A stretch of DNA of 34,193 nt from NCBI GenBank assembly GCA_015493995.1, contig WGCD01000094.1, positions 1 through 34,193 on the forward strand. Direction: 5' to 3'. The position numbers and the translations under genes are program-made. Position 1 is the first letter of the stretch, and every line of letters starts with the position of its first letter. Shown one piece after another: positions 1,408 to 34,193 of this stretch. The notes beneath the pieces are model-generated. The model was given only the letters and a program-made list of their open reading frames with translations. It searched no databases and was not told the origin of the DNA. The DNA is from Desulfurellaceae bacterium. GTDB lineage: Bacteria; Campylobacterota_A; Desulfurellia; Desulfurellales; Hippeaceae.

Positions 1408-1776
1408 TGGTGGAGACGGCGGGAGTTGAACCCGCGTCCAGAAGTGCTTCACATCCGAAGGCTTTTTACATGCTTAACCCGTTTTTTGATAATGCTGCCA
1501 AGGAAAAGCCGGGTAAAACCTCTTTTGGCAGCATACCGACTGTAATACCCGCAAAAAAGCCAATCGGCAAACTTTTTTTGCGGGGTGCGCTTATGGTTAT
1601 GAAGCCTTATCGAGTGCCTAAGCGACAAAACACCCAACAGACTGCCGCTTTTAAATTAAGCGGCTAACGCGTATTCGTTATCTGCGTTTCTTTTTTCCTG
1701 CCTATTTAACGAGCTGGCAGGAGCTCGGCATGACCTTCGAATGCCATCACACCCTGTCGAACCCAAATACGTCCCC
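1408..1776 (-). ncRNA. ssrA: transfer-messenger RNA (tmRNA)
   Basis: On the minus strand: 5' GGGGACGTATTTGGGTTCGACAGGG ... 3' GGGTTCAACTCCCGCCGTCTCCACCA. The acceptor arm pairs (GGGGACG/CGTCTCC, one wobble). Internal tag frame GCA GAT AAC GAA TAC GCG TTA GCC GCT TAA encodes ADNEYALAA. Confidence 0.97.
1656..1685 (-). other. tmRNA proteolysis-tag reading frame, ADNEYALAA-stop
   Basis: Nine sense codons plus TAA inside the tmRNA, ending in the canonical ALAA degron. Confidence 0.85.
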
Positions 1777-30856: not shown

Positions 30857-30943
30857 GCCGAGGTGGTGGAATAGGTAGACACGCCATCTTGAGGGGGTGG
30901 TGGGATAACTCCCGTGCGGGTTCAAGTCCCGCCCTCGGCACCA
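30857..30943 (+). tRNA. tRNA-Leu (GAG)
   Basis: gccgaggtggtggaataggtagacacgccatcttGAGggggtgg...gcgggttcaagtcccgccctcggcacca: long variable arm, anticodon GAG, CCA encoded. Confidence 0.97.
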
Positions 30944-32155: not shown

Positions 32156-32380
32156 TTAGAACTCAATTATATCTATTAGTTGGTGAAGAAGAGTAGTAAT
32201 TCCCTTCGTTAGCGGGATTAATTCAACAGGACTTTCAAAAAGCCTTTGTGAACAAGGATAAAAGTTTATAACTTTAATGTCAAGTTTTTGTAAAACCTTA
32301 AAAAAACAACATTTCCCGCTGTATAAGAAAAAGACATCATTTAATTGTAAAAGAGCACTTTTTGACAGGCTTTTTAACAA
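32156..32380 (-). CDS. Hypothetical ORF, 74 aa, possibly spurious
   Basis: Open frame in the otherwise empty gap between the cytochrome-like gene and cas1; TTG start without a clear RBS; no family recognised. Confidence 0.25.
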   Translation of the reverse strand: MLKSLSKSALLQLNDVFFLYSGKCCFFKVLQKLDIKVINFYPCSQRLFESPVELIPLTKGITTLLHQLIDIIEF

Positions 32381-32558
32381 TGCAAATAGCCTGCCTAATT
32401 TTGCCTATTACTTTAACTACGCCAATTACAGCATAAAGTCAAGTAAAAAATAGACTCAGAAAACCTATACAATAATTTTTTTCTACTGAAGGTCAAAAAT
32501 ATAGTTACTTTTGTCCAATTTCATTCACTTTTTTCGTTTAGTATAGATGGAGGTTGTT

Positions 32559-33476
32559 ATGAAGGGATTATTATTTGTGGCTACCCCTGGTTGCGTTATA
32601 ACAAGAAAGGATAACAACATAGTAGTCCAAAATGGGGCTGATACACATAAAATTCCGATTGGTGCAATAGAGCATGTGTTTATTTTTGGTGGCGTTCAGA
32701 TTTCTACACCCGCCGTGAGATTTATCAATACCAAGGGTAAGTTTATCTTTTTGTTAAATCAATTTGGTAAGACCGTTAGCATTATAGCGCCTGAACTTAT
32801 TACAAGTGATTACAGGATTAGACTTGCGCAGTACGAAGTTTTAAAAGATGAAAAAAAGAAACTTGAGTTAATAAAGATGTTATTGAAGACAAAAGCCAAG
32901 GGAATTGGCTATATAATGGGTTTTAATCAATCAAATTACAATAAAAGCCTGTTCATCAAAGCTTTGGAGGGTAATGTTAGATTTTCAAGTCTTCAAGAAG
33001 CTCTGGGTGTGGATGGAAATTTGAATAAAGCAATGTTTGAACACTTTAGAGATACAATGCTACCAGATGAATTTGAGTTCAACATAAGAGAGTACCATCC
33101 GCCGAAAGACCCTGTAAACGCACTTTTGTCTCTTACTTATAGCATCTATTATTCAATTTTGTTTCCCATATCACTTGCAAATGGGTTTGACCCATATCTT
33201 GGTTTCTTTCATGCAAAAAGAGGGAGACACGCATCTTTCTGTTCTGATGTTATTGAGGTTTCAAGACCGTGGCTGACTTTATTTGTTTTTCAATTATTGA
33301 ATGACGGATTTTTTCATCCTATGGATTTTATCACAAACGACAAGGGATGTTTTATAAAACAAAAAGCTCTCAAAGCTTATATAAAGATTTTTAGCGAAAG
33401 AATTATTCATAAAGACGAATCTTTTTTGAGCTATAGCGTTGATTTTTTGAAAAAATTCAAAGGAATGATTGAGTAA
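32559..33476 (+). CDS. cas1: CRISPR-associated endonuclease Cas1
   Basis: GLLFVATPGCVITRKDNNIVV..., IPIGAIEHVFIFGGVQISTPAVRFI, DPVNALLSLTYSIYYSIL, GFDPYLGFFHAKRGRHASFCSDVIEVSRPWL. Adjacent to cas2 genes. Confidence 0.95.
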   Translation: MKGLLFVATPGCVITRKDNNIVVQNGADTHKIPIGAIEHVFIFGGVQISTPAVRFINTKGKFIFLLNQFGKTVSIIAPELITSDYRIRLAQYEVLKDEKKKLELIKMLLKTKAKGIGYIMGFNQSNYNKSLFIKALEGNVRFSSLQEALGVDGNLNKAMFEHFRDTMLPDEFEFNIREYHPPKDPVNALLSLTYSIYYSILFPISLANGFDPYLGFFHAKRGRHASFCSDVIEVSRPWLTLFVFQLLNDGFFHPMDFITNDKGCFIKQKALKAYIKIFSERIIHKDESFLSYSVDFLKKFKGMIE

Positions 33477-33746
33477 ATGAAGTTTTTGATTACCTACGAT
33501 ATTTCAAGCCCGAAAAGATGGAGAAGGGTTTTTAAAACCTTGAAAAATGCAGGGCTTAACGTTCAGTTATCCTGTTTTGAGGTTGATATGAATAAAAGCG
33601 AGATTGAGAAACTAATTATGGAATTGCAAAAACTGATTGATTGGCAGGATGATAGTATATATTTTTTCCCCATAAGTAATTATGCTGAAGGGTTGACGGT
33701 TAAACTGGGTAAAAATGAGGAGATTAACGAAAGCAAGGTCGTGTGA
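33477..33746 (+). CDS. cas2: CRISPR-associated Cas2 (first copy)
   Basis: MKFLITYDISSPKRWRRVFKTLKNAGLNVQLSCFEVDM...SIYFFPI; 89 aa; Cas2 ferredoxin-like pattern; ATGA overlap with the cas1 stop. Confidence 0.93.
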   Translation: MKFLITYDISSPKRWRRVFKTLKNAGLNVQLSCFEVDMNKSEIEKLIMELQKLIDWQDDSIYFFPISNYAEGLTVKLGKNEEINESKVV

Positions 33747-33747
33747 A

Positions 33748-34032
33748 ATGAGCAGAGTTGAGAATTTTGTTGTTATTTATGATATTGAGAATACGAAGAA
33801 CAGAACAAGGCTCTCTCGATTGTTGTTTGAATACGGCATAAGAACGCAATTTTCAGTTTTTGAGGTTGAGGTTAGACAAAGGGAGTACAACAGATTTGTC
33901 AAATTGCTTGAAAAGAAAATAAAAAGCACAAAAGACAAAATATACATTTATCCGATGGATGGAAACAGCCTAAGAAAGGTTACAAGAGCAGGAAATTTGG
34001 AAAATTCAATAATAAACGACTTTTTTATTTGA
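33748..34032 (+). CDS. cas2: CRISPR-associated Cas2 (second, divergent copy)
   Basis: MSRVENFVVIYDIENTKNRTRLSRLLFEYGIRTQFSVFEVEVRQREYNRFVKLLEKKIKSTKDKIYIYPMD; canonical Cas2 pattern. Start placed 1 nt after the first cas2 stop rather than at the track's 33715. Confidence 0.93.
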   Translation: MSRVENFVVIYDIENTKNRTRLSRLLFEYGIRTQFSVFEVEVRQREYNRFVKLLEKKIKSTKDKIYIYPMDGNSLRKVTRAGNLENSIINDFFI

Positions 34033-34102: not shown

Positions 34103-34193
34103 GTGGAACTAAATAATTTTCAGATATTAAGCTTAGCCGGGTTGCTGCACGATGTCGGAAAAATAAGGCAAAGAGCCGGAGAAAAAATAATAA
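34103..34193 (+). CDS. Cas10/Csm1-like HD-domain protein, N-terminus only (truncated by window)
   Basis: AAGGAGG then GTG: VELNNFQILSLAGLLHDVGKIRQRAGEKII. LAxLLHDVGKxxQRAG is typical of the HD domain of type III Cas10. Confidence 0.8.
   Translation, partial: MELNNFQILSLAGLLHDVGKIRQRAGEKII

What the first reader, a model, noticed from the sequence alone, without database searches (positions are those of the whole stretch)
33477..34032. Two tandem, divergent cas2 genes behind one cas1
Both ORFs read as complete Cas2 proteins keeping the YDI Asp (YDISSPKRWRRVFKTLKNAGLNVQLSCFEVD and YDIENTKNRTRLSRLLFEYGIRTQFSVFEVE), yet they differ strongly. Cas2 normally acts as a homodimer bridging two Cas1 dimers, so two adjacent co-translated paralogs raise the possibility of an obligate Cas2 heterodimer, an asymmetric adaptation complex, or one copy repurposed for another role. 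The next gene is Cas10-like, so this would be a type III locus carrying its own adaptation genes.
Basis: partly seen in the sequence, partly recalled or inferred. Interest (0 to 1): 0.62.

Follow-up and report, generated by a model that had tools for sequence, protein, structure and literature searches.

The report
Conserved tandem Cas2 pair, type III CRISPR
This bacterium's CRISPR immune system carries two different, co-translated versions of the memory-writing protein Cas2 where one is usual, and the same paired arrangement recurs in at least 19 other loci, which suggests that the spacer-inserting machine may be built from two unlike halves.

Summary
ORFs 33477-33746 (Cas2A) and 33748-34032 (Cas2B) both pass curated Cas2 cut-offs, keep the N-terminal Asp, are only about 30% identical, and follow cas1 with gaps of 0 and 1 nt. 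The contig ends in cas10, but an exact 50-base overlap joins it to contig C141, giving a type III-A operon: cas1-cas2A-cas2B-cas10-csm2-csm3-csm4-csm5-csx20-CARF nuclease-weak Cas6. No other Cas1 or Cas2 was found in the genome (89% complete MAG, Desulfurellales). The pair is old and selected: seven other loci in the order carry orthologous A and B genes in the same order, with dN/dS about 0.04-0.11. Twelve more loci, eleven of them in a genome group outside the phylum, have cas1-cas2-cas2 on another Cas1 lineage; every effector typed was type III. Most likely both Cas2s serve one integrase, probably as a Cas2A-Cas2B heterodimer. Joint use is well supported; the heterodimer is inferred. From memory, a Vibrio vulnificus RT-Cas1 module also needs two Cas2s, so this is an RT-free variant of a known kind. 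A recombination junction inside cas1 joins a foreign leader, repeat and Cas1 body to the Cas2A-Cas2B-Cas10 block.

The parts
32193..32227 (+). Single CRISPR-repeat-like unit GTAGTAATTCCCTTCGTTAGCGGGATTAATTCAAC; equals the L030 array repeat with one change. Only copy of this repeat type in the genome.
32228..32558 (+). Leader-like stretch between the repeat and cas1, about 90-100% identical to L030
   Evidence: the role as leader is inferred from its place
32559..33476 (+). cas1 (305 aa; the ORF opens at 32547, but GGAGG lies just before ATG 32559). Recombinant: an L030-like body up to about 33225, an L027-like C-terminus after it.
33477..33746 (+). cas2A (89 aa), 0 nt after the cas1 stop codon
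33748..34032 (+). cas2B (94 aa), 1 nt after the cas2A stop codon; open from an alternative ATG at 33715
34103..34193 (+). Start of cas10/csm1 (GTG start, 30 residues, cut by the contig end; goes on in contig C141 through an exact 50-nt overlap)

Best explanation
The two genes encode two specialised Cas2 subunits of one adaptation complex. Made together with Cas1, they most likely pair as a Cas2A-Cas2B heterodimer at the centre of a Cas1(4)-Cas2A-Cas2B integrase that adds spacers to type III-A arrays. Shown: both are Cas2 by sequence; the pair is old, co-inherited and in fixed order; both are under strong purifying selection; the genes abut or overlap; no other Cas1 or Cas2 was found in the genome; a type III-A effector follows and an array lies about 20 kb downstream. 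Inferred: both are needed for spacer acquisition. Inferred with less certainty: they pair with each other rather than each with itself, so that the two ends of the complex differ.
For: Cas2 profile matches for both. Orthologous A and B in all eight loci of this Cas1 lineage, same order, each its own clade with 100% bootstrap. 4-nt overlaps between cas2A and cas2B in the relatives. dN/dS 0.04-0.11 for A and 0.04-0.08 for B. Asp kept in 20/20 first and 20/20 second copies. No other Cas1 or Cas2 match in the genome, yet about 18 repeats of the type that sits upstream of cas1 in relative L033. Distances of A and B correlate at 0.96 within the order, against 0.81-0.86 with Cas1. Second lineage with 12 pairs. 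Weak: single-chain models of two in-frame pairs from relatives gave pTM 0.68 and 0.67.
Against: No direct evidence of A-B contact. No homodimer control could be folded, no interface error was returned, and joining the chains forces proximity. In L067 a Cas1 nested in the second tandem lineage has a single Cas2, so in that lineage one Cas2 may suffice. Every Cas1-Cas2 complex I know of has a Cas2 homodimer. The MAG is 89% complete, so another cas2 could be missing.
Confidence: 0.6

Rival explanations
1. Two homodimeric integrases share one Cas1: Cas1-Cas2A and Cas1-Cas2B, with different prespacer or array preferences. Both are functional, but they never pair with each other.
For: Known Cas2 proteins form homodimers (family knowledge). 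The locus has one leader-repeat of one type and an array of another repeat type in the same genome, so two preferences are conceivable.
Against: One Cas1, a fixed gene order and a strict one-to-one pairing in 20 loci suggest fixed stoichiometry. The two repeat types are better explained by recombination.
Confidence: 0.2
2. One copy is the integrase subunit; the other has been repurposed, for example as a regulator or a nuclease acting on RNA or DNA.
For: The copies are divergent (25-44% identical within loci). Cas2 proteins with nuclease activity are known, as the PDB titles of homologues say.
Against: Both keep the Cas2 core and Asp and evolve at similar rates under similar constraint. Neither is seen away from cas1 in this order. 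Neither is plainly more derived.
Confidence: 0.13
3. A recent duplication, redundancy or assembly artefact without functional meaning.
For: The window is a MAG contig (89% complete, 189 contigs) with a recombinant cas1.
Against: Orthologous pairs in seven other loci, several in separately deposited MAG records; 12 pairs on another Cas1 lineage; strong purifying selection.
Confidence: 0.03

Closest known systems
Vibrio vulnificus YJ016 type III-D RT-Cas1 adaptation module with two Cas2 proteins (Gonzalez-Delgado et al. 2019, doi 10.1093/nar/gkz746)
   Same: One Cas1-type integrase with two different Cas2 proteins in a type III locus. From memory of the abstract, both Cas2 proteins were needed for spacer acquisition; the text is not held, only its citation and that the strain carries a type III-D system (PMC6360697).
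   Different: Here Cas1 has no reverse transcriptase domain, the effector is type III-A, and the pairs span many species. Homology of our pair to the Vibrio pair could not be tested.
Standard Cas1-Cas2 integrase with one Cas2 (homodimer), e.g. PDB 4qdl, 7cr6, 7mi4, 8d3l
   Same: Both proteins match such Cas2 chains: A best to 7mi4 (2.4e-08), B best to 7cr6 (6.8e-09).
   Different: Two unlike cas2 genes instead of one; each best matches a different solved Cas2.
Type III-A (Csm) CRISPR-Cas with its own adaptation module
   Same: cas10/csm1, csm2, csm3, csm4, csm5, csx20 and a CARF nuclease follow the adaptation genes.
   Different: A second cas2 next to the first.

Membership tests
Cas2 (PF09827 / TIGR01573) | Whole-protein score over the curated cut-offs | tested here: met
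   Both proteins, both libraries
Cas2 (PF09827 / TIGR01573) | N-terminal Asp at the end of strand 1 (YDI motif) | tested here: met
   20/20 first and 20/20 second copies
Cas2 (PF09827 / TIGR01573) | Ferredoxin-like Cas2 fold | tested here: inconclusive
   Predicted for a pair from relatives (Foldseek best hits are Cas2); the window's own two proteins were not folded, only matched by sequence
Cas2 (PF09827 / TIGR01573) | Homodimer between two Cas1 dimers | not testable with these tools
   No multimer prediction available
Type III-A CRISPR-Cas | Cas10/Csm1 and Csm2-Csm5 | tested here: met
   NCBIfam matches over the curated cut-offs on contig C141, joined to the window by an exact 50-nt overlap
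RT-Cas1 module with two Cas2 (V. vulnificus type) | Reverse transcriptase domain fused to Cas1 | tested here: not met
   Cas1 is 305 aa with PF01867 only; no RT gene lies directly before it in the window
RT-Cas1 module with two Cas2 (V. vulnificus type) | Two different Cas2 proteins, both required for acquisition | not testable with these tools
   Two Cas2 are present; the requirement needs an experiment

The most novel reading that the evidence does not exclude
Type III systems have, probably more than once, on distinct Cas1 lineages and without a reverse transcriptase, evolved an obligate Cas2A-Cas2B heterodimer, giving an integrase with built-in asymmetry that could decide which prespacer end meets the leader or what kind of nucleic acid is captured.
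Probability: 0.3. Interest if true: 0.72.

Novelty: new variant of a known kind. Interest (0 to 1): 0.52.

Why it matters
How a two-fold symmetric Cas1-Cas2 complex inserts an asymmetric spacer in one orientation is a central question of CRISPR adaptation; in well-studied systems factors outside the Cas1-Cas2 core (PAM recognition, Cas4, host proteins) break the symmetry (own knowledge). [quoted passage not shown] A conserved pair of unlike Cas2 subunits would put asymmetry inside the integrase, and the loci found here give about 20 small natural pairs on which to test it.

Tried and rejected
Recent duplication or artefact: rejected (orthologous pairs, purifying selection). RT-linked module: rejected for this locus (no RT domain). 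Single origin of all tandem loci: unresolved. One Cas1 clade is mildly disfavoured (AU p = 0.042; the p = 0.006 counted a nested single-Cas2 row against the group and is not relied on); one clade for all first copies (p = 0.33), for all second copies (p = 0.16) or for the whole Desulfurellales pair (p = 0.39) cannot be rejected. Cas1 relatives on named plasmids: the five regions opened carry one cas2 each. Viral contigs: none. Genome contigs returned only six Desulfurellales records, so no names were obtained for the other tandem group. Vibrio genomes could not be reached as a search centre. Paper searches found no description of tandem or heterodimeric Cas2. A mixed alignment of joined and single Cas2 put every second copy on the first half and was not used for folding. 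The wide survey of 290 genomes was cut in its match table, so no overall frequency is claimed from it. Foldseek on the joined model matched single Cas2 chains only and says nothing about the docking.

Full report
Observation. The window is contig C94 of a 1.79-Mb, 89% complete MAG; close relatives with names are Desulfurellales MAG records. Cas2A (33477-33746) and Cas2B (33748-34032) pass the Pfam and NCBIfam Cas2 cut-offs and are 33% identical over 64 residues. cas1 (start 32559, judged by the GGAGG before it) ends in TAA directly before the ATG of cas2A; cas2A ends in TGA one base before the ATG of cas2B. In the relatives cas2A and cas2B overlap by 4 nt.

Context. The genome has no other Cas1 or Cas2 match; the caveat is the 89% completeness. 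The window's last 50 bases equal the first 50 of contig C141, on which the Cas10 frame goes on. C141 then carries Csm2, Csm3, Csm4, Csm5, Csx20, the counterpart of the CARF/PDDEXK protein of relative L027, and a Cas6 match below its cut-off: type III-A. C141 ends in a CRISPR array that joins contig C110 by a 56-nt overlap; together about 18 repeats of 35 nt, start-to-start spacing 69-80 nt. That repeat is the one found upstream of cas1 in relative L033. The window keeps one repeat of another type (32193-32227), the L030 repeat with one change. Contig joins by exact overlap are likely but not proven.

Conservation. Among the 19 held genomes of the order, seven (the window's own included) have tandem pairs, in eight loci. 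Cas1, Cas2A and Cas2B are orthologous in all eight: Cas1 56-93%, A 53-85%, B 59-85% identical to the window, always in the order cas1, A, B. dN/dS is 0.04-0.11 for A and 0.04-0.08 for B where dS could be computed. A and B each form their own clade with 100% bootstrap.

Recurrence. The Cas1 of these 12 loci form one clade (100/100), apart from the Desulfurellales tandem Cas1 (100/100). Joining the two is mildly disfavoured (AU p = 0.042), so two origins are likely but not certain; the Cas2 trees do not settle whether the duplication is shared. Effectors typed next to these pairs are Csm (L048, L065) or Cmr (L062, L068): all type III. Several have CRISPR arrays close by, for example about 36 repeats in L048 and 21 in L065.

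Recombination. From the repeat (about 32190) to about 33225 the window is about 90-100% identical to L030 and about 55-72% to L027; after about 33250 this reverses. The leader, the repeat and the first three quarters of Cas1 thus come from an L030-like locus, and the Cas1 C-terminus, Cas2A, Cas2B and the start of Cas10 from an L027-like one. A chimeric assembly cannot be excluded, but the match to L030 is not exact.

Mechanism. Both proteins keep the Cas2 core and the Asp (20/20 and 20/20). Gene overlap, joint inheritance and the lack of another Cas2 make joint use the simplest reading. I favour a Cas2A-Cas2B heterodimer in one Cas1-Cas2 complex (0.6) over two homodimeric complexes (0.2) and over repurposing of one copy (0.13). 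Single-chain models of two pairs from relatives, whose genes lie in one frame (L066 and L062), folded both halves and gave pTM 0.68 and 0.67. This is only weak support: joining the chains forces proximity, the alignment had three rows, and there is no homodimer control. Reading the stop codons as residues was a modelling device; no claim is made that they are read in the cell.

Known and new. From memory, the V. vulnificus RT-Cas1 type III-D module has two Cas2 proteins that are both needed for acquisition (doi 10.1093/nar/gkz746; text not held). The Cas1 of the systems here lacks the RT domain, the effectors are III-A or III-B, and the arrangement is conserved across many species. I found no paper in the library describing tandem Cas2 pairs without RT, but the library is incomplete, so this is not proof that none exists. 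The fair class is a new variant of a known kind.

Noticed in passing
window 32190-33250: Recombination tract: the leader, the repeat and about three quarters of cas1 match L030 at about 90-100%, while the rest of cas1, cas2A, cas2B and the start of cas10 match L027.
   Followed up: partly
L067 879-2272 and 7991-9673: One contig with two cas1 modules: one with a tandem cas2 pair, one with a Cas1 nested in the tandem lineage but a single cas2, a possible natural loss of one partner.
   Followed up: partly
L051 5015-7401 and L034 2080-4971: Other Desulfurellales loci carry RT-Cas1 (L051, 704 aa) and Cas6-RT-Cas1 (L034, 869 aa) fusions, each with a single cas2.
   Followed up: partly
L060 7755-12238: Next to a tandem cas1-cas2-cas2: a Schlafen/AlbA ATPase-like gene and a 482-aa protein with a weak pAgo match.
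   Followed up: no
L064 8420-10063: The array upstream of cas1 has two internal breaks of near-equal length (276 and 286 nt) with similar flanking repeats, which looks like a duplicated segment.
   Followed up: no
window 1408-1776 (-) and 30857-30943 (+): tmRNA gene (tag ADNEYALAA) and tRNA-Leu(gag); the tRNA lies about 1.2 kb upstream of the CRISPR repeat, and in L027 a tRNA-like stretch also lies upstream of cas1.
   Followed up: no
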